This document shows, piece by piece, positions 2,781 through 27,841 of a DNA stretch of 39,240 nt. This DNA is from Actinomycetes bacterium (GTDB lineage Bacteria; Actinomycetota; Actinomycetes; Jiangellales; Jiangellaceae). The stretch covers positions 1-39,240 of the forward strand of contig JAJYTA010000021.1 in assembly GCA_021793295.1 (NCBI GenBank), given 5' to 3'. How positions within the stretch are numbered: the first letter of the stretch is position 1; every line of letters starts with the position of its first letter. Under the pieces are notes generated by a model. It had not been told where the DNA came from. It searched no databases and was given only the letters and a program-made list of their open reading frames with translations. Both the position numbers and the translations under genes were made by a program.

Positions 2781-4898
2781 TCAGTCCTCGGGGACGAGGA
2801 CCACCTGGGCGCTGCCGGTCAGCTCCGGCAGGTCACCCTCTCCGGAATCGGTGTAGCTGGCGTTGAACACGCCGCGCATCTCGTCGTGCTCCGGATCGTG
2901 CCCGCCCGGGACGGTCGTCACGAACGATCCGGTGCAGCCGTACGCCGTGGACTGCGAATGGCCGTGGTCGTCGTGTCCGACGACGTAATTCACCGTCACG
3001 CGCGAGCAATCGACCGGCTGGTCGTCGGTGACCTGAACCTCGTACTCGACCGTGTCGCCGAACGAGAACGTGTCGCCTTCGGTCGGCGTGACGAACTCGA
3101 CCACGGGACGGTCGTTGCCCACGACCACCTCGACGTCTGCAGATGCCGACTTACGCCGGTCGCGTCCGCCGATGTCGATCACCTGCAGCGTCGCTCTGTA
3201 CGCGCCGTTGTTCTCATAGGTGAACGACGGGTTCTCCTTGGTCGAGTCGACGCGTCCGTCACCGTCGAAGTCCCACCGGTACAGCAGCTTGTCGCCGTCG
3301 GCGTCCGCAGTGCCCGCGCTGGAGAACTGCACGGTCAACGGGGCCTTGCCGGCCGACGGCTCCGCGGCGATCTGGGGTTCGGGAGCATGGTTGCCGCCGG
3401 GGCCGATGTAGTCGATGCGCGACAGCTGGGCCGTCTCGTTCTCGGCGAAGTACCCGTCGCCGTACTCCAGCACGTACAACGCGCCGTTCGGGCCGAACTC
3501 CATGTCCATCGGGTTGTCGAAGACCAAGGACGGCAGGACGTCCTCGATGGTGGTCGGAGCTCCGGGGCCGTCGAGGTGGAACGCCTTCACGTAGTCACGG
3601 GTCCACTCGTAGAACAGTGCCACGCCGTCGTAGTACTCCGGCCAGGCGACCGGCGCGCGCCCGCGGGTGTTGCGGACGTCGAAGTCGTAGGCCGGTCCGC
3701 CCATCGGGCCGATGCCGCCCTCACCGAGCTCGGGGAACTCCGCGGACTCGCCGTACTGGTACCAGACGTCCGGCGGCGTCACCGGCGGCAACTGGGTCAG
3801 GCCGGTGTTGTGCGGCGAATCGTTGACCGGCGCCGCACAGTCGAATTCGGCTCCGGACTCCCCCGTCTCGAAGTCGTAGTCCACGTAGGGCGAGTCCGCC
3901 GTCGCGCAGTAGGGCCAGCCGAAGTTGCCCGCCTCGGTCACCGCGGCCCACTTGCCCGTGCCGGCAGGCCCGCGTTCGGGATCCGCCGTGGCGGCGTCGG
4001 GTGAGTAGTCGCCGACGTACAGCGTGTCCGTCTTGGGGTCGATCTCGATCCGGAACGGATTGCGCCAGCCCATCGTGTAGATCTCCGGACGGGTCTTCTC
4101 CGTACCCGGCTCGAACAGGTTGCCCTCGGGGATCGTGTAGGAGCCGTCCGCCTCGACGTGGATGCGCAAGACCTTGCCGCGCAGGTCGTTGGTGTTGCCC
4201 GAACTGCGCTGCGCGTCGAACGCCGGGTTGCGGTCGGCCCGTTCGTCGATGGGCGTGTACCCGTCGGACTCGAACGGATTGGTGTCGTCACCGGTGGACA
4301 GATAGAGGTTCCCGGCTCTGTCGAAAACGATGTCACCACCGACGTGACAGCAGATCCCGCGATCGACCGGCACATCGAGGATCTGTTGTTCGCTGGACAG
4401 ATCCAGATCGTCGCCGTCGAGTTCGAACCGCGACAGCCGGATGACGCCCTCGAACGGCTCGAAGTCTTCCGGCGTACCGAAGAACGGCGCGTCGCCTTCG
4501 TTGACGTCCGGCGTCGACGGGTCGTCGACCGGGGTGTCCAGCGGCGGCGAGTAATACAGGTACACCCAACGGTTGTCTTTTCCGTTGAATCCTGGATCGA
4601 CCGCGATGCTCTGCAGGCCTTCTTCGTCGTGCTGATACACGTCGATGGTCGCGGCCAGGCTGTTCACGCCGGTGTCGGGGTCGTGCAGCCAGACGTCGCC
4701 GGCCCGGGTGGTGTGCAGGACGCGTTCGTCCGGCAGGACCGCCAAGTCCATTGGTTCGCCCGGCCGGTCGTTGAGGGTGACCTTCTGGAACTGCGAGTCC
4801 GGTGGTGGAGTGACCTGCTGCTGCGCCGTGGCAGCAGGAGTCGCGACGAGCGCCGGGGCGATGAGAGCCCCGCCTACCATCCCTACGACTCTGCGCAT
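2781..4898 (-). CDS. Secreted PQQ-type sugar dehydrogenase with PKD domain
   Basis: A 705-residue exported protein. Residues 1-26 form a signal peptide ending near PAATAQ. Residues 35-500 match the glucose/sorbosone dehydrogenase (soluble PQQ-GDH) beta-propeller: the catalytic-type His is seen as H185 in CCHVGGD, followed by LRGKVLRIH (239-247), MGWRNPFR (276-283) and AGNFGWP (323-329). A PKD domain (507-593, WDFDGDG core) follows, then an Ig-like domain (594-705) containing GHDDHGH (641-647) that also occurs in the two larger paralogues. Unlike them it has no ThuA domain and no C-terminal binding modules. It would oxidise a sugar outside the cell; substrate and cofactor use are inferred. The ATG at 4898 has ribosome site GGAGGC. 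The gene has its own promoter upstream and a strong terminator downstream, so it is a single-gene unit. Confidence 0.88.
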   Translation of the reverse strand: MRRVVGMVGGALIAPALVATPAATAQQQVTPPPDSQFQKVTLNDRPGEPMDLAVLPDERVLHTTRAGDVWLHDPDTGVNSLAATIDVYQHDEEGLQSIAVDPGFNGKDNRWVYLYYSPPLDTPVDDPSTPDVNEGDAPFFGTPEDFEPFEGVIRLSRFELDGDDLDLSSEQQILDVPVDRGICCHVGGDIVFDRAGNLYLSTGDDTNPFESDGYTPIDERADRNPAFDAQRSSGNTNDLRGKVLRIHVEADGSYTIPEGNLFEPGTEKTRPEIYTMGWRNPFRIEIDPKTDTLYVGDYSPDAATADPERGPAGTGKWAAVTEAGNFGWPYCATADSPYVDYDFETGESGAEFDCAAPVNDSPHNTGLTQLPPVTPPDVWYQYGESAEFPELGEGGIGPMGGPAYDFDVRNTRGRAPVAWPEYYDGVALFYEWTRDYVKAFHLDGPGAPTTIEDVLPSLVFDNPMDMEFGPNGALYVLEYGDGYFAENETAQLSRIDYIGPGGNHAPEPQIAAEPSAGKAPLTVQFSSAGTADADGDKLLYRWDFDGDGRVDSTKENPSFTYENNGAYRATLQVIDIGGRDRRKSASADVEVVVGNDRPVVEFVTPTEGDTFSFGDTVEYEVQVTDDQPVDCSRVTVNYVVGHDDHGHSQSTAYGCTGSFVTTVPGGHDPEHDEMRGVFNASYTDSGEGDLPELTGSAQVVLVPED

Positions 4899-6633: not shown

Positions 6634-9600
6634 CTATTGAACTCGCAGCGCCTCCCCCATCGCCAGCAACGCCGCGCGGACCTGTTCGTCCGCGACCTCG
6701 CTGGCGACCGCGGCGTAGCGGTCCAGCGACTCGGCGGCCTGCTCGGCCAATCCCTCGCCGAACAACCGCTCGGCCACCGCCAGATGCTGCGTCATCTTCC
6801 GTTCCTGCGCCCGGTTGATGTCGCCGCGCTCGTAGTAGTCGGCGACCAGGGCCCTGGCGTTGTCGAACGTGTACTCCTGGATGCGGATGTCGCGGAAGTA
6901 CACCTCGTCCCCGCCGCCATGGTTCTGGATCCCGATGAAGCTCGGCGGATTCATCCGCGCCGGGTCCGTGTCGGTGTAGTCGTTGATCTTCACACCGTTC
7001 AGGAACACCTGGATCCGATCACCTTGGACGACGAGCTCGTAGGCGTTCCACTCCCCTGGCGGGTTCAGCGCCTCGTCGCGGGCTTCCTCGTCGGCACCCT
7101 GGAAGCCGTAGACGGCGCCGGTCGTGCGGTCCGGCTCGTCCGTGGCGTCGATCTGGATCTCGTGCCCCTGGTCGACGGCCGCCCACGGGTCGTCGCCGGG
7201 ATCCGGGAAGCCGACGAACACACCGGAGTTGTCGTCACCGGGCATCATCCAGTCCAGCTTCAACGAGTACGACTCGAACGCCTCGTCGTACCAGTACAGA
7301 CCCATGCCGCCGTACGACAGCAGCTCACAGCCGATGTGGTGGAAGCCGCCGGGTCCGGCCATCCGCCAGTTCGCCAGGCTCGCCTCGGTCCCGTCGAACA
7401 GGCTGCGGTAGCCGGGTTCGGGCTCGGTCGGCTCACACGGCTGCGGCGGCGGGCCGTCGGAGACGTGGAAGTACTCGAACGTCGCCGGCTGCCCCTCACC
7501 GTTGAACGCCGCCAGGCCGATCCGCGGGTTCGTCATCGTCGACATCGGGCGCGGCCGGCCGAACTGGGTCCATTCCTCGCCGTCGGCGGACCAGTACGCC
7601 GTCAGCGTGTGACCGTCGCTGACGACCTTGACGTGAGCGTTCTCGGCGATGCCCGCGGGGAGCTCACCGGAGCGGTCCAGGTCGGGATCGAACACCGCCG
7701 AGCCGGCCACGTCCTGACCGAACTCGAACCGCCAACCGACGTCGGGAATGTTGATCAGGACCGCCTTGGCGAAGTTCTGGTCACCGGCGTGGACCATGAT
7801 CCCGGCCTGCTCGTAGTCCCCTCCGGCGGGGATCGCGAGCTGGGTGCTCACCTCGAACCCAGCCTCGGGCTCGTCGACGTCCTGCAGGATGACGTTGGCC
7901 GCGCTGGTGTTGCCGTTGTGCATGTCACCCTCGAGCGCGTCGATCTGCAACTGCCCGTCGGCGAGCCGGTAGTGCTCGGCGTCCGGGCGCAGGATCGTCG
8001 ACCAGCGGCACTGGTCGAGCTCGGTGCCGTCGAACTCGTCGTTCGGGTCGACCTCGGCGTCGGGATCCGGGCAGGCCGCCTCGTCGGAGCTGAACATCAT
8101 CGCGTCGATGTCCATCAGCCCACCGCCGTCACCACGGAACACCAGGAACAGCTCGTCGGTACCGCCCGGGTCGGTCACCGCGACCGGGGAGACCTGGACG
8201 TAGTTGTCCGGGCTTCCGGTGTGCGGCACCGGCACGGTCGCCGCCAATTCGCCGTCCGGCGCACCCATGCGTAGCTCCACGGTTCCACCGGGGCCGCCGG
8301 CGGACACTCGCATGCTCACCGACTTGATGCCCGCCAGGTTCCACGGTTCGAACGAGATCCAGTCGCCGTCGTCGATGTAGCCGACGCGGGCGCCGCCCTC
8401 GGCATCACCGTGGCTGACGACCTGCACGCCGCTCTGCGCCGAGAAGTGCTCGGCTTGGCGGTGCTTCGGCTGCAGGATGAGTTGCGCCGTACCCGTCGCC
8501 GGACCGGTGTCGGAGTTCGGCGGGGTGTCGGTGTACTCGGCCAACAGCAGCCCGAAGATGTTGTCGTCGGTGCCGTGTGCGGCATCGGACCCGGTCGGCA
8601 CCGTGCCCGAACAGCCGTAGACGGTGTCGCCGCCGTGCGTGTGCTGATCGTGCCCGAGCGCGAAGGTGACCGCGACGTCGGCACAGTCGACCGGCTGGCC
8701 GTCCGGGTCGGTCACCGACAGCTCGTAGGCCACGTCGTCACCGAACGAGAACATCGAACCGTTGGCCGGCTCGACGAACTCGACCACCGGTGCGGTGTTG
8801 CCGACCACGATGTGCACCGTGGCCACACCTTGGTGGCCGTCCTGGTCGGTGACCGTCAACGTAGCGGTGTACTCGCCGTTCTCGGTGTAGGTGTGCGACG
8901 GGTCGGGCTCGGTGGAGTCCGTGGTGCCGTCACCGTCGAAGTCCCACGCGTAGGTGATGGTGTCGCCCGGATCCGGGTCGTTGGAGCCTTCGGAGCTGAA
9001 CTGCACCGTCAGCGGGGCGATCCCGGATGTCGGGTCACCGCTGGCGACCGCCTCCGGCGACCGGGTGCCCTTGACGTAGTCGATGCGGTACAGCGCCGAG
9101 TTCTCGTCACCGTTGAAGAATCCGGTGCCGTAGTCGAGCACGTACAGCGAACCCTCCGGCCCGAACTCCAGATCCATCAACTGCGTGTTGTCGACGAAGG
9201 GGAAGGACTCGATGCGTCCCGGCGAGCCGTCCTCGTTGACGTTGATCGGTTTGATCCATTGCCGGCCGAACTCGTAGGCGAAGAACTTGCCGTCGTAGTA
9301 CTGCGGGAACTTCGTCTCCGAGTCCAGATCCGGGTCGAAGTGATACACCGGCCCGCCCATCGGGGACTCGCTGCCGGAGCCGAACTCCGGCACCGACCCG
9401 CCGTCGTAGGCGATCCACGCCGGCTGGGCGGGCGGCACGGTCTCGAGGCCGGTGTTGAGCACGGAGTCGTTCACCGGCCCGTTGGCGCAGTCGAACTTCT
9501 CCCCGATCGGGTCGTTGAGGCCGTCGTTCGGGTCCGGCTCGCCGGTGTTCGGGTCCTCGCCGTAGTAGGCGGTGAAGTCCCGATCGACGTAGGTCTCCTC

Positions 9601-11307
9601 CGGGGTGTTCATGCCGGTGCAGTAGGGCCAGCCGAAGTTGCCCGGCTCGGCGACCCGGTTGAACTCGACCTGTCCCGCGGGGCCGTACTGGTTGGCGCTA
9701 CCGGAGTCGGGACCGTAGTCGCCGACCCACACGACACCGGTCTGCTGGTCGACGCTGATCCGGAACGGGTTGCGGAAGCCCATCGCGTAGATCTCCGGGC
9801 GCGTCTTCTCCGTTCCCGGCTCGAACAGGTTGCCCTCGGGGACGGTGTACGAGCCGTCGTCCTCGACGTGGATACGCAGGATCTTGCCGCGCAGATCGTT
9901 GGTGTTGCCCGAGGTACGGCGGGCGTCGAACTGCGGAGCGCGGTCCGCGCGGTCGTCGATCGGCGAGTAGCCGTTGGACTCGAACGGGTCGGTGTCGTCA
10001 CCCGTGGACAGGTACAGGTTGCCGTCGGCGTCGAAGTCGATGTCGCCGCCGTGGTGACAACAGTTGCCGCGGTCCTGGGGCACCTGCAGGATCACCTGCT
10101 CGGAGTCGAGATCGAGCTGCCCGTCGGCGAACTTGAACCGAGACAGGTTGTTGTGGCCCTCGTAGGCCTCCCACACGCTGGGATCGAGGCTACTGTGCAC
10201 CACTTCGCCGTCGGGTGTGTCCAGGACCGGCGAGTAGTAGAGGTAGACCCAGCCGTTCTCCTCGAAGTTCGGGTCCAGGGCGATGCCCTGCATGCCGTCT
10301 TCGCGGAAGCCGTAGACCGGGACCTGCGCAGCCAGCGAGGTCTGTCCCGCCGCTGCGGTGTAGTAGACCGCACCGGAGCGGGAGGTGTGCAGCGCGCTTC
10401 CGTCCGGGAGGACGGCCACCCCCATCGGCTCGCCCATCTCCTCCGGCCCCTTGGCCAGGGTGATCTGGTCGAAGTTCGCTTCGACGCTGGCGCCGCAGTC
10501 GGCGTCGGCCTGCCCTGCGGCAGTCTGGATGCCGCCGAGCAGGTGCTGGACGAACTCGGGGTCGGTGAAGGACTCCGAGGTGTGCCCGCCGCCGGTGTAC
10601 CACGCCCGGCCGCCGTCGTAGTCGTGGCACCACGCGATCGGGTGGTCCGCGCCCATGCCGCCGCCGTCGTACGTCTCCTCGTCCAGCGCGGCCAGCACGT
10701 GCACGTCGCCGCGCGGATTGTCCTGGAAGTTGTACCACTCGTCGGTGCGGACCCACTCCTGCGGCAGATGCGCCGTCGACGGATGCGCGTGGTCCTCGAC
10801 CTCGACGGTCGCCTCCTGGATGGCCGGGTGGCTGTCGAAGTACGCGCCGACCAAATCGCCGTACCAGGGCCAGTCGTACTCGGTGTCGCTGGCCGCGTGG
10901 ATGCCCGCGTAGCCGCCGCCGTCCTGGATGTAGGCCTCGAACGCCGCCTGCTGCTCGTCGTTCAGCACGTCGCCGGTGGTGGACAGGAACACGACCGCCT
11001 CGTACTGGGCGAGGTTGTCCTCGGTGAAGGCCGTGGCATCCTCGGTCGCGGTCACGGCGAAGCCGTTCTCGGCTCCGAGCTGCTCGATCGCCGCGATGCC
11101 GTCCGGGATGGAGTCGTGCCGGAATGCGGCGGTCTTGCTGAACACCAGCACGTCGAACTCGGCCTGCGCCGGTGCCGTCGGCTCCGGCTGGTCGGTAGCC
11201 ACGGCCGCACTGCTCAGGCTCATCGGAACGGCGACGGCGAAGCCCACTGCGGTGGCGGCTGCGCGTCTGAATGACCTGCCTCGTCGTCTCGTCGGATCGT
11301 CTCTCAC
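6634..11307 (-). CDS. Giant secreted ThuA-PQQ dehydrogenase-PKD-CBM-DUF1080 enzyme
   Basis: A 1557-residue exported protein. Order of domains: signal peptide (1-38, after an RRGRSFRRAA basic start); ThuA domain (about 50-265; GGGYAGIHAASD, DEWYNF, HPIAW); glucose/sorbosone dehydrogenase propeller (275-745; CCHHGGD, LRGKILRIH, GNFGWP); PKD (751-835); Ig-like domain with GHDQHTH (836-948); CBM6-like domain (949-1072); DUF1349-like concanavalin fold (1088-1283); DUF1080, the Pfam 3-keto-disaccharide hydrolase family (1299-1478); and an alpha-helical C-terminus (1480-1557) shared with the 1840-aa paralogue. The chosen start is GTG at 11307, preceded by GAGGAGG at 5 bases; the longer frame to 11412 runs through a stem-loop. 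It would oxidise a glycoside and hydrolyse the keto product outside the cell (inference). It is downstream of the 1840-aa gene, separated by a stem-loop. Confidence 0.9.
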   Translation of the reverse strand: MRDDPTRRRGRSFRRAAATAVGFAVAVPMSLSSAAVATDQPEPTAPAQAEFDVLVFSKTAAFRHDSIPDGIAAIEQLGAENGFAVTATEDATAFTEDNLAQYEAVVFLSTTGDVLNDEQQAAFEAYIQDGGGYAGIHAASDTEYDWPWYGDLVGAYFDSHPAIQEATVEVEDHAHPSTAHLPQEWVRTDEWYNFQDNPRGDVHVLAALDEETYDGGGMGADHPIAWCHDYDGGRAWYTGGGHTSESFTDPEFVQHLLGGIQTAAGQADADCGASVEANFDQITLAKGPEEMGEPMGVAVLPDGSALHTSRSGAVYYTAAAGQTSLAAQVPVYGFREDGMQGIALDPNFEENGWVYLYYSPVLDTPDGEVVHSSLDPSVWEAYEGHNNLSRFKFADGQLDLDSEQVILQVPQDRGNCCHHGGDIDFDADGNLYLSTGDDTDPFESNGYSPIDDRADRAPQFDARRTSGNTNDLRGKILRIHVEDDGSYTVPEGNLFEPGTEKTRPEIYAMGFRNPFRISVDQQTGVVWVGDYGPDSGSANQYGPAGQVEFNRVAEPGNFGWPYCTGMNTPEETYVDRDFTAYYGEDPNTGEPDPNDGLNDPIGEKFDCANGPVNDSVLNTGLETVPPAQPAWIAYDGGSVPEFGSGSESPMGGPVYHFDPDLDSETKFPQYYDGKFFAYEFGRQWIKPINVNEDGSPGRIESFPFVDNTQLMDLEFGPEGSLYVLDYGTGFFNGDENSALYRIDYVKGTRSPEAVASGDPTSGIAPLTVQFSSEGSNDPDPGDTITYAWDFDGDGTTDSTEPDPSHTYTENGEYTATLTVTDQDGHQGVATVHIVVGNTAPVVEFVEPANGSMFSFGDDVAYELSVTDPDGQPVDCADVAVTFALGHDQHTHGGDTVYGCSGTVPTGSDAAHGTDDNIFGLLLAEYTDTPPNSDTGPATGTAQLILQPKHRQAEHFSAQSGVQVVSHGDAEGGARVGYIDDGDWISFEPWNLAGIKSVSMRVSAGGPGGTVELRMGAPDGELAATVPVPHTGSPDNYVQVSPVAVTDPGGTDELFLVFRGDGGGLMDIDAMMFSSDEAACPDPDAEVDPNDEFDGTELDQCRWSTILRPDAEHYRLADGQLQIDALEGDMHNGNTSAANVILQDVDEPEAGFEVSTQLAIPAGGDYEQAGIMVHAGDQNFAKAVLINIPDVGWRFEFGQDVAGSAVFDPDLDRSGELPAGIAENAHVKVVSDGHTLTAYWSADGEEWTQFGRPRPMSTMTNPRIGLAAFNGEGQPATFEYFHVSDGPPPQPCEPTEPEPGYRSLFDGTEASLANWRMAGPGGFHHIGCELLSYGGMGLYWYDEAFESYSLKLDWMMPGDDNSGVFVGFPDPGDDPWAAVDQGHEIQIDATDEPDRTTGAVYGFQGADEEARDEALNPPGEWNAYELVVQGDRIQVFLNGVKINDYTDTDPARMNPPSFIGIQNHGGGDEVYFRDIRIQEYTFDNARALVADYYERGDINRAQERKMTQHLAVAERLFGEGLAEQAAESLDRYAAVASEVADEQVRAALLAMGEALRVQ

Positions 11308-11370
11308 AACGCCCTCCTCGTGTGCGGTACTGGCGCGCTCCTGTAGCCCTCGGCCCGGGCGTGGTCGTTC

Positions 11371-11406
11371 GGCGAGGGGTATCGCGCCAGCGCGACACCC
11401 CTCGCC
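11371..11406 (-). terminator. Stem-loop between the two giant enzyme genes
   Basis: GGCGAGGGGT (11371-11380) pairs perfectly with ACCCCTCGCC (11397-11406), and TCGCGC/GCGCGA continues the stem after one mismatch. It starts about 10 bases after the stop of the upstream 1840-aa gene and ends 64 bases before the start of the next gene. It may terminate, attenuate, or stabilise the upstream message. A perfect 12-base palindrome GATCACGTGATC (11407-11418) adjoins it and overlaps the stop codon. Confidence 0.6.
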
Positions 11407-11416
11407 GATCACGTGA

Positions 11417-14400
11417 TCACAGCTGTGCTCGCAGTCCTTCGGCGATGGCGTGCAGGCCGGCTCTCACCTCCTCGTCCGCGACGCCGTCGGCGACGGCGAC
11501 GAACCGGTCGAGTGCAGCTTCGGCCTGCCGGACCAGGCCTTGCTCGCTCGTGTGCTCCGCGGCATCCAGATGTCCCAGCAGCCGGTTCGCCTGCGCGACA
11601 CTGATCAACGCGTCGGCGCGGTACTGCTGGACCTGCTCTCGAGCGGCGGGATAGTCGACCGGCGCGTCAGGCACGAAGCGGAAGTGATCGAACGCGACCT
11701 GGACGGGCTCCTGCTGCTCCGGCCCGATGGCCATCAGCCCGATGGAATCCAGGACGGCGTCGTTGGTCACCGGCTCGCCCAGCGACGTCCACTCCTGCCC
11801 GTCCGCACTGATCTGGGCCGAATAAGTGGTACCGGATCTGCTCAGCCGCAGGTGATACCAGCCACCGTCCGGTTGGCCGGTGAGGTCGATCTGCCGGTTG
11901 CCACCGCTGCCGAAAGCACCACCTTGTTCGGCCACCAGCTCCGCGCCCAGAGCGGTCGCGGTCCCGGGCTGATTGCGGGCGACGACGTCGAACTTCACGT
12001 AGTTGTCGTCGTCGCCGTAGACGATCAAGCCGGCCAGCTGCCACCGGTGGACCATGGTGGGCGTCAGGGCGGTCTCGACCGTCCAGTCGCCGTCGGGCAA
12101 GCCCTGCAGGATGAAGTTTCGCGGGTCGTCGTTGGCCTCGCCGTTGATGTCACCGGGCTGGGTCTGAATCGTCAGCTGCCCGTCTGCAACCGCCACGGTC
12201 GACGCGTCGTAGCGCACCACCGAGTCCCAGCGGCAGCCATCGAGCGTGTCGCCGTCGAAGGTGTCCGACGGTTCCCGTACGCCGTCGTCGTCGGAGTCCG
12301 GCGTGACGGTGAAGTGTCCGAACACCGCGTCGACCTCGGGCGTGCCGGTGTCGCCGGCTGCCATGACGCCGACGGTGGCGCCGTCGATGACGTGACCTGC
12401 CCCGGCCATGTCGACCCATGTCTCGCCGTCGACGGAGTAGGCCGCGGTGAGCTGTGCGCCGTCACTGGCCAGGCGCAGGTGCGCCGTCGTCGGGAAGTCC
12501 GCGGGGACGGTCAGGTTGTCGTGCCACGTCCGGCTGCCGCCGGCCTCGGTCTGGAATTCCAACAACCGGCCGCCGGAGGCGTCGCGGGTGAAGGCCAGCT
12601 TGACGTAGTTGTCGTCGTCGCCGTGCATCAGCAGTCCGGCGTGCTGCCACTCGCGGGTGTGCTCGATCGTCACCGAGGTCTCGACCGTCCACTCGCCCGC
12701 ACGGGCCGGCTGACCGACGTAGCTGATCGGGCCGGCGGCGTCTTCGTTGATGTCGCCGGCGGTCACCGGCAGCCGCAACGCGCCGTCCGCGACGGTCACC
12801 GGCGTCTGCTCGGCCGAGCGCACCGTGGTCCACCGGGTGGTGTTCAGGGCGTCGCCGTCGAAGTCGTCGGACTGGGCGATGGAGCACACCGGGCCCGGGT
12901 CGGGATCCGGGTCCGGCTCGGGCTGCCACACCTCGTCGGCCAACGTGAACCCGGCGAACTGGGCCCGGTTGGTCTCGGTGGAGCTGTGCGCCGTGACGGC
13001 GACGCCGATGTCCTGTGTCGCGGCCGCGCCGGGCAACACGACCGGCTCCCCGATGGCGGTGAAGTCCTCGCCGTCCTTGCTCCAGTACGCCGTGTACTGG
13101 TCGCCGTCGCGAACCAGGCGCACCCAGGCCGGGTAACTGGTCGAGCCGGCGCCGTCGCTGGCGTCGAGTTCACCGTTGCCGTCGGTGTCGCGCAGCCACT
13201 CGAACCCGAGACCGGCCCGCATGACCAGCGCGGCGTAGCCGGGCGATGCACCCGGCTGCGTGACGTCGTTGCGGACGATCAGCCCGGCCTTGGCCGAGTC
13301 CGCCGAGGCATCCTGCTGATCGATGCGCACCGTCGCCGTCCACTGCTCACCTGCGGCGGCGGGCAGGTAGGCCGCACCGTATTCGTCGGTCCCCTGCCAC
13401 ATGTTGGCCCCACCGGAGTCGATGACCCATGTGTCGGTGTCCGGCCGGTCGAACGACGCTTCGACGTTGCTGAACGTCTGCCAGTCGCCGTAGAGGTCGC
13501 CGACCTCCACCCGCACGATCCGCGACGTCCGGCTGGCGCCGTTGTCGTTGGTCGCCACGGCCGTCAGGTTGTACCGGCGCTGCTCGGTCGCGTCCCAGGT
13601 AACGGCGTACGGTGCGGTCTCGTCGACGCCCAGGGACACGCCGTCGGCGAAGAACTCCACCTGGGTGACGGTGTTCTCCGCGTCACGGGCCTCCGCGGTG
13701 ATCTCGATCGGGCCTGGCTCGAGGTCGTCGTCGGCTGCCGGAGCAGTGATGGCCACCTCCGGTTTGGTGGTCGTCGCCGCACCCTTGCCGTGGGCCTCGA
13801 TGAAGTTGAGCGTGCGCGCGCCGGCGCCGGGGAACACCACGTACAGCGTGAACGAATCAGCCGCGTCCGCGCCCGCACCGGGCACGGCGACGGTGGCGTC
13901 GACGTACCCCGTCGGCCCGGTCGGCGGGATCTCCGCGGTGCCCAGCACGTCGCCGTCCTTAGCATCGCGGCGCAGCTCGATCACCCCACCCTCCGGTGCG
14001 GCCGCGCGCAGCGTCAGGGCGTCGACGTTGTACAGGCTCATCGGCTCGTACGACGCCCACGCGCCGTCCGCGCCGGTGATGGCATCGCCGTGGCCCTCGA
14101 TGTCGCGCGACCCGGCCGTGGTGATGCCTTCGGATTCGTCGAAGAACTCCGCTTCGCGCTGCCTCGGGAACAGCAGCGACGTGTCCTCACCGGTCAGCGG
14201 CGGGACACCACTGGCGCCACCGCTGTCGGTGTAGCGGCCGTTGAGGATGTAGAAGACGTTCATGTCCTCGCTGTGTCCGCCGCCCAGCTGGGTGATCACC
14301 GAGCCGGTGCGCCCGGACAACGGGTCGGCCGGATGCGGATGATCGTCGTGCCCGAGCGCCGGCTGGATGACGATGTCGTCGTCGGCGATGTCCTCGTCCT

Positions 14401-16939
14401 CGGCATCGGTCACCGTGACGTCCCACGCCACCTCGTCCCCGAACTCGAAGAACGAGCCGTTCGGCGGCAGGGTGAACTCGACCTCCGGCCTGGTGTTGCC
14501 GACCGTGATCGGCGCCGTGGTGGTGCCGGTCTTGCCGTGCGGGTCGGTGACGGTCAGGCGCGCGTCATAGACGCCGTCCTCGGCGTAGGTGTGGTTGGCC
14601 GTCGGCCCGGTCGCGTCGATGGTTCCGTCGCTGGTGAAGTCCCACTCGTAGGTGAGCTCCTCGCCTTCGGGGTCGGTGCTCGTGGTGCCGTCGAAGGTGA
14701 CCTCGAGCGGGCCCGGCCCGGAATCCGGCGTCGCGACGATGTGCGCCTCCGGCGAGCGTGAACCCGATACGTAGTCGACGCGGTACAGCCCTGAATCCGG
14801 GTTGTCGCGGCCGAAGCCGCCGCCCCAGTCGAGGACGTACATGGAGCCGTCAGGCCCGAACTTCGAGTCGATGGGCGCGAGGAACTCCTCCTGCGGCAGG
14901 AACCGGTTCACCTTCTCCAGCTGCGTGGTGTCACCGTCGGGGATCAGGGTGTACATCGCGTTGCGCGACCACTCGTAGAAGAACGCTTTGCCGTCGTAGG
15001 ACGACGGGAACTTCGTGTCCGACTCCAGCTCCGGGTCGAAGTGGTAGAACGGCCCGCCCATGGGGGCCAGTCCCCCGCCCTGCGCGATCACCTCGGGCAC
15101 CGACGAGCGCTGGTAGCCGTACCACAACTGCGGCGCCTGGACCGGTGGCAGCTCGGTCAGCCCGGTGTTGCGCACGGAGTCGTTGATCGGGTTGTCGCAG
15201 TCGAAGTACTCGCCGACCGTGACCGGGTCGGTGGTGTAGTCGACGTCGCGGAACGGCTCGTTGTCGCCCATGCACAGTGGCCAGCCGTAGTTGCCGGGTC
15301 CGGTGATGAGGTTCCACTCCGCGATACCCGCCGGGCCGCGGTTCGGGTTGTCCGCGCTGTTGTCCGGCGAGTAGTCGGCCAGGCTGATGTGTCCGGTCTC
15401 CGGGTCGACGGAGAACCGGAACGGGTTGCGAAAGCCCATCGCATAGATCTCTGGGCGGGTCTTGTCCTCGGTGTCCTCGGACTCCGGGAACAGGTTGCCC
15501 TCGGGGATGCTGTACGTGCCGTCGGGCTCGGGGTGGATGCGCAGCAGCTTGCCGCGCAGATCGTTCGTGTTGGCCGACGTGGCGCGGGCGTCGTGGAACG
15601 TTCCCTCGCGCTCGGACAGGGGGGCGTAGCCGCCGGACGGCTCGGAGTGCGGGTTCACGTCGTCGCCCACGCTGAGGTAGAGGTTGCCGTCGGCGTCGAA
15701 GTCGAGACCGCCGCCGGTGTGCCCCGGCTCGTCAGGCAGCCTGCGGGCCGGGACTTCCAGGAGTACCGCCTCGGTGGCCGGATCGATCTGGGAGTTCTCG
15801 CCGACAGTGAACCTCGACAGCCGGTTGACGAAGTTCGCCGGGTCGGTGTCGTCGTCACTGGCCGGCGAGTAGTAGACGTACAGGTGCCCGTTGGCACTGA
15901 AATCCGGGTCGAGCGCGATGCCCAGCAGGCCGTCCTCACCGCCGGAGTACACCGGGATCGTCACCGCGGTCGAGGTCGTCTGTGTCTGCGGGTCGTACAC
16001 CCGGATCTGACCCCGGACCAGTTCGGTGAAGAACACTCGACCGTCCGGGGCGATGTCGATCGCGAACGGCGCACTGGTGTTCTGGTCGAGCGGCACCCGT
16101 TCGAACTGGTCCCACATGGTGCCGCCGCAGTCGCCCTCGGCGAGCCCGGCGGCCCACTGGACACCGCCGACGATGTGCTGCACGAAGTCGGGTTCGTCGG
16201 TGTAGTGGGCGCCGAAATGGCCCATGGCCGTCACCCACGCGCGGCCGCCGTCGTACGGCTTGCACCACGAGATCGGGTGGTCGTAGCCCATGGCGTTCTC
16301 GCCCGGGTCGTACGTCGTCTCGTCCATGGTGGCCAGGACGTGGGCGTCTCCGCGCACGTTGTGCGAGAAGTTGTACCACTCGTCGGCGCGGTCCCACCGC
16401 TGCGGAAGGTGCTCGGTGGACGGGTGTGAGTCGTCCTCGATCTGGACCGTGCCGGGCTGGCCCGGGCTGGTGCCGGTCGCCGCATGCCCCGGCATCAGCG
16501 AACCGACCAGTTCGTCCCACCACTGGTAGTTGCCGCGCATGTCGGCGGCGTTGTGGATGGCGACGATGCCGCCGCCGGCCTGCTGGTAGCGCTCCATGGC
16601 GGCCTTCTCGTCATCCGTCCAGGGATCGCCGGAGGCCTGGAACATGATCAGCGCGTCGAAGCGGGCGAGGTCGTCGTCGTTGAAGATCGACGAGTCCTCG
16701 GTGTGCTCGGAGGTGATGCCGGCATCGGCGAACGCCGACTCCAGAACGGGCACGCCCTGCTCGATCGCCTCGGTGTGCCGATACGCGGCAGTCTCGGTGA
16801 AGATCAGCACGTGCGCGTCACCTGGCGGTGGTTCGTCCTGGGCCGGTGCCGGTGCGGCGCTGAGCAGGGCCAGCGCCAGCGCCGCGGCCAGAGCCACGAC
16901 CAGGAGTCTTCCCCAACGCTGACGTAGTGCGACGTTCAT
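11417..16939 (-). CDS. Giant secreted ThuA-PQQ dehydrogenase with three concanavalin-like domains
   Basis: A 1840-residue exported protein, paralogous to the 1557-aa enzyme. Domains: signal peptide (1-33, ending APAPAQ); ThuA (about 40-270; GGGIVAIHNAAD, DEWYNF, HPISW); glucose/sorbosone dehydrogenase propeller (275-725; PGHTGGGLDFD carries the catalytic-type His, LRGKLLRIH, GNYGWP); PKD (730-813); Ig-like with GHDDHPH (814-925); CBM6-like (926-1052); a bacterial Ig-like domain (1058-1147); three DUF1349/GH43-C2-like domains (1149-1337, 1355-1547, 1557-1757); helical C-terminus (1760-1840). DUF1080 is absent; the extra concanavalin-like domains replace it. Start ATG at 16939 with GGGAGGAAG ribosome site; an upstream in-frame codon at 16969 has none. 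It follows the epimerase by 94 bases on the same strand. Polysaccharide binding plus sugar oxidation is inferred. Confidence 0.9.
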   Translation of the reverse strand: MNVALRQRWGRLLVVALAAALALALLSAAPAPAQDEPPPGDAHVLIFTETAAYRHTEAIEQGVPVLESAFADAGITSEHTEDSSIFNDDDLARFDALIMFQASGDPWTDDEKAAMERYQQAGGGIVAIHNAADMRGNYQWWDELVGSLMPGHAATGTSPGQPGTVQIEDDSHPSTEHLPQRWDRADEWYNFSHNVRGDAHVLATMDETTYDPGENAMGYDHPISWCKPYDGGRAWVTAMGHFGAHYTDEPDFVQHIVGGVQWAAGLAEGDCGGTMWDQFERVPLDQNTSAPFAIDIAPDGRVFFTELVRGQIRVYDPQTQTTSTAVTIPVYSGGEDGLLGIALDPDFSANGHLYVYYSPASDDDTDPANFVNRLSRFTVGENSQIDPATEAVLLEVPARRLPDEPGHTGGGLDFDADGNLYLSVGDDVNPHSEPSGGYAPLSEREGTFHDARATSANTNDLRGKLLRIHPEPDGTYSIPEGNLFPESEDTEDKTRPEIYAMGFRNPFRFSVDPETGHISLADYSPDNSADNPNRGPAGIAEWNLITGPGNYGWPLCMGDNEPFRDVDYTTDPVTVGEYFDCDNPINDSVRNTGLTELPPVQAPQLWYGYQRSSVPEVIAQGGGLAPMGGPFYHFDPELESDTKFPSSYDGKAFFYEWSRNAMYTLIPDGDTTQLEKVNRFLPQEEFLAPIDSKFGPDGSMYVLDWGGGFGRDNPDSGLYRVDYVSGSRSPEAHIVATPDSGPGPLEVTFDGTTSTDPEGEELTYEWDFTSDGTIDATGPTANHTYAEDGVYDARLTVTDPHGKTGTTTAPITVGNTRPEVEFTLPPNGSFFEFGDEVAWDVTVTDAEDEDIADDDIVIQPALGHDDHPHPADPLSGRTGSVITQLGGGHSEDMNVFYILNGRYTDSGGASGVPPLTGEDTSLLFPRQREAEFFDESEGITTAGSRDIEGHGDAITGADGAWASYEPMSLYNVDALTLRAAAPEGGVIELRRDAKDGDVLGTAEIPPTGPTGYVDATVAVPGAGADAADSFTLYVVFPGAGARTLNFIEAHGKGAATTTKPEVAITAPAADDDLEPGPIEITAEARDAENTVTQVEFFADGVSLGVDETAPYAVTWDATEQRRYNLTAVATNDNGASRTSRIVRVEVGDLYGDWQTFSNVEASFDRPDTDTWVIDSGGANMWQGTDEYGAAYLPAAAGEQWTATVRIDQQDASADSAKAGLIVRNDVTQPGASPGYAALVMRAGLGFEWLRDTDGNGELDASDGAGSTSYPAWVRLVRDGDQYTAYWSKDGEDFTAIGEPVVLPGAAATQDIGVAVTAHSSTETNRAQFAGFTLADEVWQPEPDPDPDPGPVCSIAQSDDFDGDALNTTRWTTVRSAEQTPVTVADGALRLPVTAGDINEDAAGPISYVGQPARAGEWTVETSVTIEHTREWQHAGLLMHGDDDNYVKLAFTRDASGGRLLEFQTEAGGSRTWHDNLTVPADFPTTAHLRLASDGAQLTAAYSVDGETWVDMAGAGHVIDGATVGVMAAGDTGTPEVDAVFGHFTVTPDSDDDGVREPSDTFDGDTLDGCRWDSVVRYDASTVAVADGQLTIQTQPGDINGEANDDPRNFILQGLPDGDWTVETALTPTMVHRWQLAGLIVYGDDDNYVKFDVVARNQPGTATALGAELVAEQGGAFGSGGNRQIDLTGQPDGGWYHLRLSRSGTTYSAQISADGQEWTSLGEPVTNDAVLDSIGLMAIGPEQQEPVQVAFDHFRFVPDAPVDYPAAREQVQQYRADALISVAQANRLLGHLDAAEHTSEQGLVRQAEAALDRFVAVADGVADEEVRAGLHAIAEGLRAQL

Positions 16940-17033
16940 CTTCGACTTCCTCCCGGGGCGAGTGAGCATGAGCGTCTGGGCAGACCCCGCGGCATGCGGG
17001 ACCGACGCGGAGGCGAACCGTGTGAGCGGCGCG

Positions 17034-17888
17034 TCACCCCCTCAGGCCCGTCAGGAACGCCAGGCCATCGACGGCCAGGGCGTCCTGCGTCGCGGCCAGC
17101 GGCCGCCAGATCGACGCCGCCGTCGCGATGGTGGCGTTGTCGGCGGTGAACGACTCGATGACCAGCGGGCCGTGGTAGCGCGCTTCGTCGAGTGCCGAAG
17201 CCATGCCGGCCCAGTCCAGGTGATCCGCCCCTGGAGCGCCCCGGTCGTTGGCGCTGACCTGCACGTGGGCGATCCGGCCGGCAGCGCGGCGAATCGCTGC
17301 GGGAACGTCGCGCTCCTCGATGTTCATGTGATAGACGTCCAACGCCAGCGCGCAGGCGTCCGGCGGTAGCCCGTCCAGGGCCTCCAGAGCCTGGTCAACG
17401 GTGTTGAGCAGGCTCGTTTCGTACCGGTTGAGCGGTTCGACGGCGAGGCACACCCCGGCTTGCGCGGCATGGTCCACCACCGGGCCGAGACTCTCGCGCA
17501 GCTGGGCGTACCGAGTACGTCGCTCGGCAGCGTCCATCCGCCATGTGCGACCGACCGAGGCGTAGGCCGGCCCGGCGATCGTCGGCGAGCCGACTACCTG
17601 CGCCACGTCGACGACGTGACGCAGGTAGTCGCGGGTGGTGGCGACCGTTCCCCGGTCGGTCGCCACCAATTCGCGGCCCGCGCCCATGACGAGCACGACG
17701 CTCGCCGCGAGGCCCAGCGAGTCGAGCAGCTTCGCCGCCCGGCCCGGATCCCAGTCGCCGGGGTTCTCGACCGGCAGCTCGATCACGTCGAAGCCCCAGT
17801 CGGCGATCCGCGGCGCGAGCTCGGCCAGGCTCGTGTCGGTGAGGGGCGAGGTCCACACCCAGGTGTTGACTCCCAGCGCCCGGTTCAT
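17034..17888 (-). CDS. Sugar isomerase/epimerase, D-tagatose/psicose 3-epimerase-like
   Basis: A 284-residue TIM-barrel protein of the xylose-isomerase-like/AP-endonuclease-2 superfamily, which interconverts ketoses at C3 or, in some members, processes 3-keto-glycosides. The family stretch VEPLNRYET (150-158) supplies metal ligand E151; D184 in ALDVYHMNIEE and E245 in VIESF match the other ligands. At the fourth ligand position the DTE/psicose epimerase His is a Gln here (Q210 in AHVQVSANDRG), as in hydroxypyruvate isomerase-like members, so the substrate may differ. The ATG at 17888 has GAGGAG 9 bases upstream; a TTG at 17897 is too close to it. It lies directly downstream of the binding-protein gene and upstream of the secreted enzymes, pointing to a role on the imported sugar. 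Confidence 0.85.
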   Translation of the reverse strand: MNRALGVNTWVWTSPLTDTSLAELAPRIADWGFDVIELPVENPGDWDPGRAAKLLDSLGLAASVVLVMGAGRELVATDRGTVATTRDYLRHVVDVAQVVGSPTIAGPAYASVGRTWRMDAAERRTRYAQLRESLGPVVDHAAQAGVCLAVEPLNRYETSLLNTVDQALEALDGLPPDACALALDVYHMNIEERDVPAAIRRAAGRIAHVQVSANDRGAPGADHLDWAGMASALDEARYHGPLVIESFTADNATIATAASIWRPLAATQDALAVDGLAFLTGLRG

Positions 17889-17924
17889 CGACGTCAACTC
17901 CTCGTGTTCTCGAACGGTCGTGGC

Positions 17925-19163
17925 TCAGCGGTCCTGCCATGCCTCGGGGTAGCCGGGCAGGTTCTCGCCACCGAACTTGGCGTAGTGCAGGCTCGGCATG
18001 TCCGCGTTGCGCTGCAGGTATTCATCGCGGTCGGCTTCGGTGACCGGCGCTTGCGGCAGCACCCACTCCGACGGCACTTGCTCGCCGTTCCAGATCTGCA
18101 CGGCGGCCTCGATCGGGGTGCGCCACTGGAAGTTGGAGTAGACCGGGGCGATCGCCGTCATGCCGGTCTCCTGCCACTTGCGCATGAAGCTCAGCTCGTC
18201 CTCGCCGACCATCACGGGGTAGTCGTTGCCGGTGTCCTCGAACGCCTCGACCGCCGCGACGGCGCCGTCACCGGCGTCCATCCAGATGCCGTCGACGTCA
18301 CCGCGCTGCAGGTACTGCGTGACGATGTCCTTGATCGCCGCACCGTCGCCCTCGGTGAATTCGTCTCCGAGGATCTCCAGGTCGCTGTCGGCGAAGATCT
18401 CCTGCGCCGCCGCCCACCGGTGTTCGAGCACGTCCACGCCGGGCAGGATCCGCAGCGCCAGGACGGTCGACCCCGGTTCGAGGTTCTCGACCAGGAACTC
18501 CGCGCCGTCGGCTCCGTAGGCGTAGCCGCCGATCGGGTGGATGAACGTCACCATGCAGTCGGTGTTGACGCCGCGGTCGAACACGATCACCGGAACGCCG
18601 CTCTCGCAGGCCGCCTCCACCGCCGGGGTGAGGGTGGCGGTGGTGGACGGTGAGATGATGATCGCGTTGCAGTCGCCGGCGTCGACGAATGCCTGGATGT
18701 CGGAGATCTGCTTGTTGTCGTCGTCGCCCGCGTCGGACACCCGGAACTCACCGATGTCGCCGCTGTCCTTGTAGACCTGAACCTGCTGCTGCATCGTGAT
18801 CCAGCCGGTCACCCGCCACGGATTGCTCACCGAGGCGTTGGAGAAGCACAGCGTGTTGCCGTCCTGCGCGTATTCGGCGGTGTCGACGTACTCGGGCTCG
18901 ATGGCCTGCAGCCATGGCTGGTCGGCAGGGCCTTCGGGCTCGATGTCGCGCTGGGCGAGCTGGCGCTCGTACTCGGACTGGACGAACCACTCGTCGGCAT
19001 CGGATTCCTCGGCCTCCTCTTCGGAGTCGGCCTCATCACCGGCCTCGTCGTCGACCACCTGGTCGACCTCGTCGGTCGAGTCCGCTGGGTCGTCAGTGGT
19101 GCACGCCCCGACCGCCAACGCCGCGGCGACCGCCACGACGGATAGAACGCGGGTCTTCCGCAT
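17925..19163 (-). CDS. Sugar ABC transporter substrate-binding lipoprotein
   Basis: A 412-residue periplasmic-binding-protein type I (ribose/galactose-type) protein. The signal ends in a lipobox AVGAC with lipidated C21. Residues 22-57 are a strikingly acidic tether (runs of D and E), after which the binding fold begins near GNTLCFSNASVSNPWR. GVPVIVFDRGVNTD and GIWMDAGDGAVAAVEAF are typical segments of this class. It would capture a sugar at the cell surface and deliver it to the two permeases encoded upstream. The ATG at 19163 has a GAGGAGG ribosome site. The acidic tether is longer and more charged than usual, which suggests a thick or salty cell envelope environment; the ligand cannot be told from sequence. 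Confidence 0.92.
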   Translation of the reverse strand: MRKTRVLSVVAVAAALAVGACTTDDPADSTDEVDQVVDDEAGDEADSEEEAEESDADEWFVQSEYERQLAQRDIEPEGPADQPWLQAIEPEYVDTAEYAQDGNTLCFSNASVSNPWRVTGWITMQQQVQVYKDSGDIGEFRVSDAGDDDNKQISDIQAFVDAGDCNAIIISPSTTATLTPAVEAACESGVPVIVFDRGVNTDCMVTFIHPIGGYAYGADGAEFLVENLEPGSTVLALRILPGVDVLEHRWAAAQEIFADSDLEILGDEFTEGDGAAIKDIVTQYLQRGDVDGIWMDAGDGAVAAVEAFEDTGNDYPVMVGEDELSFMRKWQETGMTAIAPVYSNFQWRTPIEAAVQIWNGEQVPSEWVLPQAPVTEADRDEYLQRNADMPSLHYAKFGGENLPGYPEAWQDR

Positions 19164-19186
19164 CGTCTTGTCCTCCTCGGTTCATG

Positions 19187-20230
19187 TCACGAACGTGCTG
19201 GTTCCGGACGTGCATCGTCGACGGGTGGCGCGGGCTGCGAACGCTCCCGGGCCGCATAGGCGACCGCGGCGATGATGATCAAGCCCTGTGCGGCAGGCCT
19301 GATGGTCGACGGCAGACTGAGCTGGTTGAACAGGGTGAACAGGGCTTCGACGGTCAAGGCGCCGGCCATCGCGGCGATCACCGTTCCCCGGCCGCCACCC
19401 AGCACCACACCGCCGAGGACGACCGCCGTGATGGCTGCGAACTCCAGCCCCTCCCCGACCTGCGCGGTCACCCCCGCATAGCCGCCGATGAGCACGGCCG
19501 CGAGCGTCGCCATGACACTGGACAGCACGAACGCCGCGGTCCGCACCTGCCAGACCCGCACGCCGGAGAACGCGGCGGCCTGTTCGTTGTCACCCACCGC
19601 GATGAGCACGCGGCCGTACGGGCGCCGCATCACCACCACCGCGGCGATCACGACCGCGACCAGGATGAGTAGCGACCACGGCAGCAGCCGGACCACCGGC
19701 ATCTCGACGCCGCCTCGACCGGGCTGGCGGAACGCCTCGGACAGTGCGCCGGTGGGGGCGCCTCCGGTCCACAGCCGGTTCGCGCCATAGAGCACCAGCA
19801 TCATGCCCAGCGTGGTGATCAGCGAATGCACCTTGAGCACGGTGGTGATCAGCCCGTTGACCAGCCCGACCAGGACACCGAACACCAGCATCAGCAGCAG
19901 GACCGGACCCGTGCGGCTCTCTTCGCCGTCGATCAGCGCTGCGGCGATGACCACTTGCGTGCCCACCAGCGATCCGACCGAGAGATCGAGCTCGCCGGCG
20001 ACGATCACGAAGTACTGGCCGATGGCCAGGACCACCAGCGGTGCGGCGTTCTTGATGAACGCCATCAGCGACGGCGGCTCCATGAAGCTCGGGTTCATCG
20101 CGAAGATGCCCGCGAAGATCACGATGAGCAGGGCGAACACGGTGGCGCTGCCGCCGCCGAACAGCGCGCTGGCCACGCCGGCGACCCTGGAGGCGCCGGA
20201 GCTGCGGTGTGCGGGACGCGGGGCGGTCAT
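19187..20230 (-). CDS. Sugar ABC transporter permease (RbsC type) 2
   Basis: A 347-residue integral membrane protein of the branched-chain/ribose permease family. About ten hydrophobic segments are visible, starting at FALLIVIFAGIFAM. The motif GQYFVIVAGELDLSVGS is the conserved CUT2 permease segment, and AITAVVLGGVVLGGGRGT is the conserved cytoplasmic loop region that contacts the ATPase. The ATG start overlaps the stop of the upstream permease by 4 bases (ATGA), and the binding protein follows after 23 bases. With the other permease (20227) it would form a heterodimeric channel. Confidence 0.93.
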   Translation of the reverse strand: MTAPRPAHRSSGASRVAGVASALFGGGSATVFALLIVIFAGIFAMNPSFMEPPSLMAFIKNAAPLVVLAIGQYFVIVAGELDLSVGSLVGTQVVIAAALIDGEESRTGPVLLLMLVFGVLVGLVNGLITTVLKVHSLITTLGMMLVLYGANRLWTGGAPTGALSEAFRQPGRGGVEMPVVRLLPWSLLILVAVVIAAVVVMRRPYGRVLIAVGDNEQAAAFSGVRVWQVRTAAFVLSSVMATLAAVLIGGYAGVTAQVGEGLEFAAITAVVLGGVVLGGGRGTVIAAMAGALTVEALFTLFNQLSLPSTIRPAAQGLIIIAAVAYAARERSQPAPPVDDARPEPARS

Positions 20231-24022: not shown

Positions 24023-24030
24023 GGCCGATG

Positions 24031-24060
24031 AACCTAGCGGTGACTTTTGTCGCGTGTCAA
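24031..24060 (-). promoter_or_regulatory. Promoter of the importer/catabolic operon
   Basis: On the minus strand TTGACA (24055-24060) is followed after 18 bases by TAGGTT (24031-24036). The start codon at 24022 lies 9 bases beyond the -10 box, so transcription would begin at or next to the ATG. Confidence 0.6.
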
Positions 24061-24068
24061 TCAAAAGT
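24043..24068. promoter_or_regulatory. Candidate ROK3 operator between divergent genes
   Basis: A perfect inverted repeat ACTTTTG-N12-CAAAAGT (arms 24043-24049 and 24062-24068) covers the -35 box and spacer of the importer operon promoter. It lies 66 bases upstream of ROK3. This is the expected place for ROK3 to repress the operon and possibly itself. Confidence 0.6.
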
Positions 24069-24133
24069 TGCGGGCTTGTTGCCAATCTATGGCGTGACGG
24101 GCAGACGCAAGACGGATGTGTTTCACTTACTAG

Positions 24134-27840: not shown

Positions 27841-27841
27841 G

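What the first reader, a model, noticed from the sequence alone, without database searches (positions are those of the whole stretch)
2958..2978. Conserved GHDxHxH motif in an unnamed Ig-like domain
After the PKD domain all three secreted proteins carry a ~110-residue domain with GHDDHGH (here), GHDQHTH (8635-8655) and GHDDHPH (14333-14353), followed by a second Gly-His or Ala-His element and YTD. Clustered His/Asp in an otherwise divergent domain suggests metal binding or catalysis.
Basis: seen in the sequence. Interest (0 to 1): 0.55.

Follow-up and report, generated by a model that had tools for sequence, protein, structure and literature searches.

The report
Histidine-clustered Ig domain on sugar dehydrogenases
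A small, unnamed immunoglobulin-like domain that follows a sugar-dehydrogenase and a PKD domain in secreted proteins of bacteria and archaea keeps three histidines with few exceptions, which suggests an undescribed metal-binding site attached to these enzymes.

Summary
GHDxHxH lies at the three stated places (3 hits, 0.02 expected), each in a ~110-residue domain ("X") directly after GSDH-PKD. No Pfam or NCBIfam model covers X above cut-off. X or its distant relatives occur in 75 of 296 class genomes. Sampling by GSDH-PKD, 70 of 72 evaluable proteins have H-x(2-9)-H-x-H in the next domain, against 2.4 in shuffles and 0 of 72 in their PKD domains. Leaving out the 19 query rows it is 51 of 53; among 8 proteins missed by the X profile it is 6. 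The three His also hold in Paenibacillus, Alphaproteobacteria and Haloferax, at 30% median identity. A fourth site in the E-F loop is His in 56 of 67; the other 11 have Asp/Glu in that loop. AlphaFold2 (pLDDT 91) gives an Ig/PKD-type sandwich with the three His around a two-residue hairpin turn. I read X as a metal-binding Ig domain serving GSDH enzymes. The metal and its job are untested. YTD is probably a generic Ig feature. Novelty: new variant of bacterial Ig domain.

The parts
2781..4898 (-). P0001, 705 aa secreted GSDH-PKD-X protein; X is the C-terminus
   Evidence: most orthologous frames in L080-L159 also end within a few residues after X
2784..3119 (-). X domain of P0001 (residues 594-705), Ig-like fold
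   Evidence: AlphaFold2 pLDDT 91.1; no Pfam model over cut-off
2958..2978 (-). GHDDHGH (residues 641-647): H642, H645, H647 = three-His hairpin
   Evidence: invariant His
2898..2900 (-). H667, fourth His in the E-F loop (proposed fourth ligand); another His, 671, lies 4 residues on in P0001
   Evidence: 98% His in 60 X domains; His in 56 of 67 wider homologues
2847..2855 (-). YTD (residues 682-684), probably a generic Ig/PKD feature, not the His site
   Evidence: end of strand 81-90 in the X model
3129..3392 (-). PKD domain of P0001 (residues 503-590)
   Evidence: PF18911 59 bits
3405..4811 (-). GSDH beta-propeller of P0001 (residues 30-498)
   Evidence: PF07995 106.6 bits; Foldseek 2ism E 2.2e-16
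6634..11412 (-). P0002: ThuA-GSDH-PKD-X-CBM6-GH43_C2-3keto-disac_hyd-FIMAH
8473..8802 (-). X domain of P0002 (residues 871-980)
8635..8655 (-). GHDQHTH of P0002 (residues 920-926)
8575..8577 (-). H946, fourth His of P0002 (Ala-His)
11417..16969 (-). P0003: ThuA-GSDH-PKD-X-CBM6-Big_7-GH43_C2/DUF1349 repeats-FIMAH
14171..14500 (-). X domain of P0003 (residues 824-933); lacks the Cys pair
14333..14353 (-). GHDDHPH of P0003 (residues 873-879)
14273..14275 (-). H899, fourth His of P0003

Best explanation
X is a metal-binding immunoglobulin-like domain that forms the third module of a secreted GSDH-PKD-X enzyme core. Three His from a tight hairpin (H-x2-H-x-H; H49, H52, H54 of the P0001 domain) and a fourth His or acidic residue from the E-F loop (H74) most likely hold one transition-metal ion (Zn2+ or Cu2+ class) at one end of the sandwich. 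In most window-type copies a disulfide probably staples the domain. Most likely the metal serves the dehydrogenase, by fixing X against the propeller or substrate or by acting as an accessory redox/Lewis-acid centre, in an oxidative sugar-breakdown system. Shown: conservation, linkage to GSDH-PKD, predicted fold and hairpin position. Inferred: metal binding, ligand set and any coupling to GSDH.
For: Sampling by the GSDH end plus PKD: 70 of 72 evaluable proteins carry H-x(2-9)-H-x-H in the next domain; own-residue shuffles give a mean of 2.42 and a maximum of 8; the PKD domains of the same 72 give 0. Without the 19 query rows it is 51 of 53 (count). In a joint set of 68 domains under 80% identity (mean 34%, median 30%) 67 have all three His, while the flanking G and D vary. 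A fourth E-F-loop His is in 56 of 67; the other 11 have Asp/Glu in that loop, a metal-ligand-like exchange. In L285, which lost the cluster, all four positions changed together, which suggests one unit (n=1). Reach: Haloferax, Skermanella, Leisingera, Salipiger, Paenibacillus. In the X model H49 ends one strand, D50-D51 form the turn, and H52 and H54 lie two apart on the next strand, so the three should share a face. In the first set all 75 main hits have PKD adjacent and GSDH upstream. Cys pair: 47 of 60 both, 13 neither, 0 mixed.
Against: No metal was observed and no coordinates were available, so ligand distances were not measured. In the GSDH-PKD-X model the block holding the motif has pLDDT 63; the block with H74 has 75 in the X-only model. 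Eleven of 67 domains lack the fourth His. The GSDH-PKD sample is not wholly independent: its profile was built from proteins found through X, and of the 8 evaluable proteins that the X profile had missed only 6 have the three His. L285 keeps the aligned GSDH His and Arg-Asn but has lost the X histidines, so these are not strictly needed wherever that GSDH site survives. Three own-genome GSDH proteins have no X after them (C223, C278, C43). In PMC4562250 the isolated ThuA-GSDH-PKD-CBM6 subunit was not activated by any metal tried, and only the whole complex by Ca2+ (passages); a tightly bound metal would not show up that way, and X in that protein is inferred. Fold matches to CopC and DUF4198 are no better than to many other Ig-like domains.
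Confidence: 0.7

Rival explanations
1. Structural site only: the His cluster (with or without Zn2+) merely stabilises the hairpin and the domain, as disulfides and Ca2+ do in other Ig/PKD domains, with no role in the enzyme reaction.
For: Four protein ligands would saturate a metal. A Cys pair in 47 of 60 X domains and Cys within the hairpin loop of one distant group suggest the region needs stapling. L285 lost the His with aligned GSDH residues kept.
Against: The site survives from Bacteria to Archaea while the rest diverges to about 30%, nearly always beside GSDH in the hits examined. The fourth ligand varies, which is less usual for a purely structural site.
Confidence: 0.4
2. Catalytic or electron-relay centre: the metal in X takes part in the reaction, for example by accepting electrons from the GSDH cofactor or acting as Lewis acid on the oxidised sugar.
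For: Steady pairing with GSDH. GSDH keeps residues aligned with sGDH H144 and the R-N pair at 228-229. A ThuA-GSDH-PKD-CBM6-PKD protein is reported as a xylosidase/glucosidase whose catalytic domain is unknown (PMC4562250). Genes beside the window proteins fit 3-keto-sugar chemistry.
Against: No PqqE over cut-off in the genome, so cofactor use is unproven. GSDH proteins without X exist. No invariant Cys/Met ligand of the kind used in fast copper electron transfer. L285 is a counter-example.
Confidence: 0.2
3. Ligand-binding patch: the His bind sugar, polymer or cell-wall groups and X is a carbohydrate-binding Ig domain without metal.
For: X sits between PKD and CBM6 in the large proteins; Ig domains in such enzymes can bind polysaccharide (general knowledge).
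Against: Sugar sites usually rely on aromatic residues and vary (general knowledge); here three His are near-invariant, and where the fourth is absent the loop holds an acid.
Confidence: 0.12
4. Sampling or alignment effect: closely related or motif-selected sequences make an ordinary His-rich hairpin look conserved.
For: The genome-contig scan selected for the motif, so its 88 of 88 is not independent; the GSDH-PKD profile came from domain-bearing proteins.
Against: 70 of 72 (51 of 53 without query rows) against 2.4 in shuffles and 0 in the PKD control, with minimum pairwise identity 12%.
Confidence: 0.04

Closest known systems
Big_7, bacterial Ig domain (PF17957), with solved relative 9KVU (B1 domain of CelAly)
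   Same: Big_7 matches 21 of 36 X domains at E<=1; in P0001 X it covers positions 1-52 of 70. 9KVU is the best sequence hit (E 2.3e-6) and the best Foldseek hit (E 4e-4)
   Different: 9KVU shows no His hairpin in the alignment. X is longer, has the His site, and P0001 X scores 23.7 bits against a cut-off of 24.1
PKD domains (PF18911/PF00801), e.g. ColG PKD
   Same: Same sandwich fold (VIA-align Z 10.2-10.4, 84 residues, 1.9-2.1 A)
   Different: The PKD domains of the same proteins lack the His pattern (0 of 72)
DUF4625 (PF15418)
   Same: Weak match to X (11 of 36 at E<=1, best 5.5e-4). I recall a His-rich hairpin in DUF4625; no call showed it
   Different: 20.6 bits against a cut-off of 27; no DUF4625 sequence was compared directly
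CopC and DUF4198 metal-binding Ig-like proteins
   Same: Similar sandwich (5icu Z 8.5 over 89 residues; 9gcb Foldseek E 0.036)
   Different: Neither is among the Pfam hits of X; ranks are among generic Ig matches
Cellulosimicrobium cellulans M768_06655 (PMC4562250, section 11 and passages)
   Same: Reported order ThuA-GSDH-PKD-CBM6-PKD resembles X-bearing proteins here
   Different: X is not named in what I saw of that paper and I did not have its sequence; its catalytic domain is stated to be unclear

Membership tests
Big_7 (PF17957) | score over Pfam gathering cut-off 24.1 bits | tested here: not met
   P0001 X alone 23.7 bits, in full protein 20.4. Some distant relatives pass (L180 32.6, L182 27.8, L183 27.4, L294 28.5, L296 25.3, L297 26.1), matching only positions 1-33 of 70
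DUF4625 (PF15418) | score over gathering cut-off 27 bits | tested here: not met
   20.6 bits for P0001 X
PKD domain (PF18911) | score over gathering cut-off for X itself | tested here: not met
   No PKD family for P0001 X or among the 12 families of the 36 X domains; some distant relatives match below cut-off; the preceding domain passes
Ig-like beta-sandwich fold | sandwich matching solved Ig/PKD domains | tested here: met
   Seven strands of 3 or more residues, pLDDT 91.1; Z 9-10.7 to PKD, Ig-like and macroglobulin domains
Metal-binding domain | conserved cluster of possible ligands at one place in the fold | tested here: inconclusive
   Conservation met; closeness inferred from secondary structure only
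Metal-binding domain | bound metal | not testable with these tools
   needs purified protein
CopC (5icu) | CopC sequence family and copper ligands | tested here: inconclusive
   No CopC model among Pfam hits at E<=1; fold Z 8.5 only
GSDH (PF07995), upstream domain | gathering cut-off 25 bits | tested here: met
   106.6, 123.1 and 107.6 bits
PQQ-dependent sugar dehydrogenase | active-site residues aligned with sGDH H144, R228, N229 (roles recalled) | tested here: met
   H156, R250, N251 invariant in A11; H156 and the RNP motif align to 1c9u
PQQ-dependent sugar dehydrogenase | PQQ cofactor use | not testable with these tools
   No PqqE over cut-off in the genome; PQQ could be taken up

The most novel reading that the evidence does not exclude
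X is a built-in redox or catalytic metal centre: GSDH oxidises the sugar and the His-bound copper (or Mn/Zn) of X takes the electrons or activates the 3-keto product, so that GSDH-PKD-X with ThuA and 3-keto-disaccharide hydrolase modules forms one secreted oxidise-and-cleave machine. This would explain a ThuA-GSDH-PKD-CBM6-PKD protein that acts as a glycosidase without a glycoside-hydrolase domain.
Probability: 0.13. Interest if true: 0.75.

Novelty: new variant of a known kind. Interest (0 to 1): 0.5.

Why it matters
GSDH-PKD proteins are found in many microbes, and the annotated ones seen here are called only 'PQQ-dependent sugar dehydrogenase', 'PKD domain-containing' or 'ThuA domain-containing protein'. 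A well-conserved, unnamed His-site domain next to the dehydrogenase gives a precise place to look for a missing cofactor and for the unexplained glycosidase activity of one such protein. It also allows a new domain model to be built that reaches from Bacteria to Archaea.

Tried and rejected
A profile of 36 diverse X domains was too diverse for the search for related loci; a narrower 9-row alignment worked, but its pattern contains GHDxHGH, so those loci were not used as evidence for motif conservation. The viral scan had 14 pattern hits and no relatives. Alignment A6 held one frame-shifted row by my error and was replaced by A7. A first count of the fourth His (58 of 67) took in two His outside the loop; the recount is 56 of 67. 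YTD as part of the site was rejected: it lies at the far end of the F strand. Electron transfer as the main reading was set back by the lack of PqqE and by L285. Fold search of the three-domain model was dominated by propellers. I first read the stretch after PKD in L286 as FIMAH; Pfam gives no hit there. Literature searches listed no paper that I recognised as describing X; only PMC4562250 (section 11 and passages) and PMC10628242 (passages) were opened. Bacteroidota could not be sampled; that their GSDH-PKD proteins end in cytochrome c is recalled, not tested.

Full report
Observation. The three GHDxHxH motifs are real, in frame and at the stated places. The degenerate pattern has three matches in the window, against 0.02 expected. 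Each lies in a domain of about 110 residues right after a PKD domain. Architectures: P0001 is GSDH-PKD-X; P0002 is ThuA-GSDH-PKD-X-CBM6-GH43_C2-3keto-disac_hyd-FIMAH; P0003 is ThuA-GSDH-PKD-X-CBM6-Big_7-GH43_C2/DUF1349 repeats-FIMAH. No Pfam or NCBIfam model covers X over its cut-off; the nearest are Big_7 and DUF4625. A fourth copy is in the same genome.

Spread. With a profile of the three copies, 75 of 296 genomes of the class have a match at E<=0.001; with a 36-row profile, 38 of 396 genomes of the phylum. Both counts include weak hits to the distant relatives described below. In 60 X domains below 90% identity (from 75 hits), G, H, H and H of the motif are 100%, D 98%, the later His 98% and Asp of YTD 100%. 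All 75 main hits have PKD adjacent and GSDH upstream; two weak second hits also lie in GSDH proteins.

Test by GSDH-PKD. I searched 396 phylum genomes with a profile of the end of GSDH plus PKD (A9, at most 8 candidates scored per genome) and looked at what follows. The 74 hits of 110 bits or more were examined (66 read loci or from earlier loci); weaker hits, mostly PKD alone, were dropped. Two could not be judged: L277 runs into a contig end, and in L281 the frame breaks within PKD. One search shows the domain with its His in the next frame in the latter case; it was not counted. Of the other 72, 70 have H-x(2-9)-H-x-H in the next domain; shuffling each domain's residues gives 2.42 on average and 8 at most in 500 rounds. 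The PKD domains of the same 72 give none. Limits of this test: the 19 rows of the profile came from proteins found through X. Without them the count is 51 of 53. Nine of the 74 places were not in the X-profile list; 8 of these are evaluable and 6 have the three His. The exceptions are L285, where all four His positions have changed, and L286, an own-genome ThuA-GSDH-PKD-3keto-disac_hyd protein with no Pfam domain directly after PKD.

Distant relatives read HHADHIHP, FHDNHTHP or HHC(3-5)CHxHP instead of GHDxHxHP. In an alignment of 6 X domains and 11 distant ones only P5, G21, D32, H49, H52, H54 and D91 are invariant. A reciprocal search with the distant group (A10) recovers X at E values down to about 1e-20. 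Of the X-profile hits outside the 74, two checked ones (L311, L312) also lie in GSDH proteins and have the His; one (L313) is a plain Ig domain without His or GSDH; one (L184/L316) follows PKD in a short frame without GSDH; L179 is a broken fragment. Plasmid records added Haloferax, Skermanella, Leisingera, Salipiger and Paenibacillus with the same three His after GSDH-PKD. A joint set was made of the 70 positives, L285 and five plasmid-borne copies (L286 left out): 68 sequences below 80% identity remain (mean identity 34%, median 30%, minimum 12%), and 67 have all three His. Because it contains the positives, this set shows divergence around the His, not their frequency. Of the 67, 56 have another His 14-25 residues on, in the E-F loop; the other 11 have Asp/Glu in that loop.

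Structure. AlphaFold2 on X alone with 49 sequences: pLDDT 91.1, pTM 0.82, seven strands. H49 ends strand 41-49, D50-D51 form the turn, H52 and H54 lie on strand 52-60. In a two-residue hairpin the residues flanking the turn face the same side, and so do residues two apart; so the three His should share a face. H74 is in the loop 68-80, which in an Ig sandwich should lie at the same end. Y89-T90-D91 closes strand 81-90 at the other end. The GSDH-PKD-X model has pLDDT 84.8 and pTM 0.86, but only 63 around the motif. Fold matches are ordinary Ig/PKD-type domains, with CopC and a Ni-bound DUF4198 protein among many others.

Enzyme context. The GSDH domain matches solved sugar dehydrogenases; H156, R250 and N251 are invariant in A11, and H156 aligns with residue 144 of soluble glucose dehydrogenase. 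The role of these residues in PQQ binding is recalled. No PqqE passes its cut-off in the genome. Of nine GSDH places in the genome, four carry X, C223, C278 and C43 do not, C137 ends with its contig and C155 is a 292-aa frame not followed further. The neighbourhood holds three ROK regulators, a xylose-isomerase-like TIM barrel, a sugar-type ABC importer, a Gfo/Idh/MocA oxidoreductase and a beta-galactosidase. A published Agrobacterium operon for 3-keto-glycoside breakdown also combines a dehydrogenase, sugar isomerase-like enzymes and a Gfo oxidoreductase (PMC10628242, passages). A Cellulosimicrobium protein with ThuA-GSDH-PKD-CBM6-PKD is reported as the essential subunit for xylosidase/glucosidase activity, with its catalytic domain unknown; added metals did not activate the isolated subunit, and Ca2+ raised the whole complex to 127% (PMC4562250, section 11 and passages). 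X is not mentioned in what I saw of that paper.

Conclusion. X is an Ig-like domain, not described in any paper I found, with a near-invariant three-His hairpin plus a fourth His or acidic position, nearly always beside GSDH-PKD in the hits examined. Metal binding is the best explanation (0.7). A structural role for that metal (rival, 0.4) and a redox or catalytic role (rival, 0.2) are sub-readings of the same claim, so the figures overlap. None of this has been measured.

Noticed in passing
window 2784-3119, 8473-8802; homologues: A Cys pair in X is all-or-none: 47 of 60 have both, 13 neither, none one; P0003 has neither. Likely a disulfide.
   Followed up: partly
L285 / L287 (G542 contig C116): A GSDH-PKD-Ig protein that lost all four His positions at once but kept a Cys pair and the aligned GSDH His and Arg-Asn.
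   Followed up: partly
L288 (own genome C223): ThuA-F5_F8-GSDH-PKD-3keto-disac_hyd protein with no X; its RNPFR motif reads RNIST, so the GSDH may be degenerate.
   Followed up: partly
window 17034-24085 (-): Xylose-isomerase-like TIM barrel, sugar-type ABC importer and Gfo/Idh/MocA oxidoreductase beside the GSDH proteins, resembling a published 3-keto-glycoside operon.
   Followed up: partly
L113:9667-12270: GSDH-PKD-X followed by a CBM6-like and a second PKD-like stretch (read by eye in the alignment), an order like the Cellulosimicrobium xylosidase subunit of PMC4562250, so X may lie in that protein between PKD and CBM6.
   Followed up: partly
L314 (G550 contig C21): A GSDH-PKD-Ig gene whose frame breaks between PKD and the His domain: a pseudogene or a sequencing error.
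   Followed up: no
window 27193-27897 (-): DsbA-like thioredoxin protein, possibly of use to the Cys-bearing secreted proteins; the distance makes a link uncertain.
   Followed up: no
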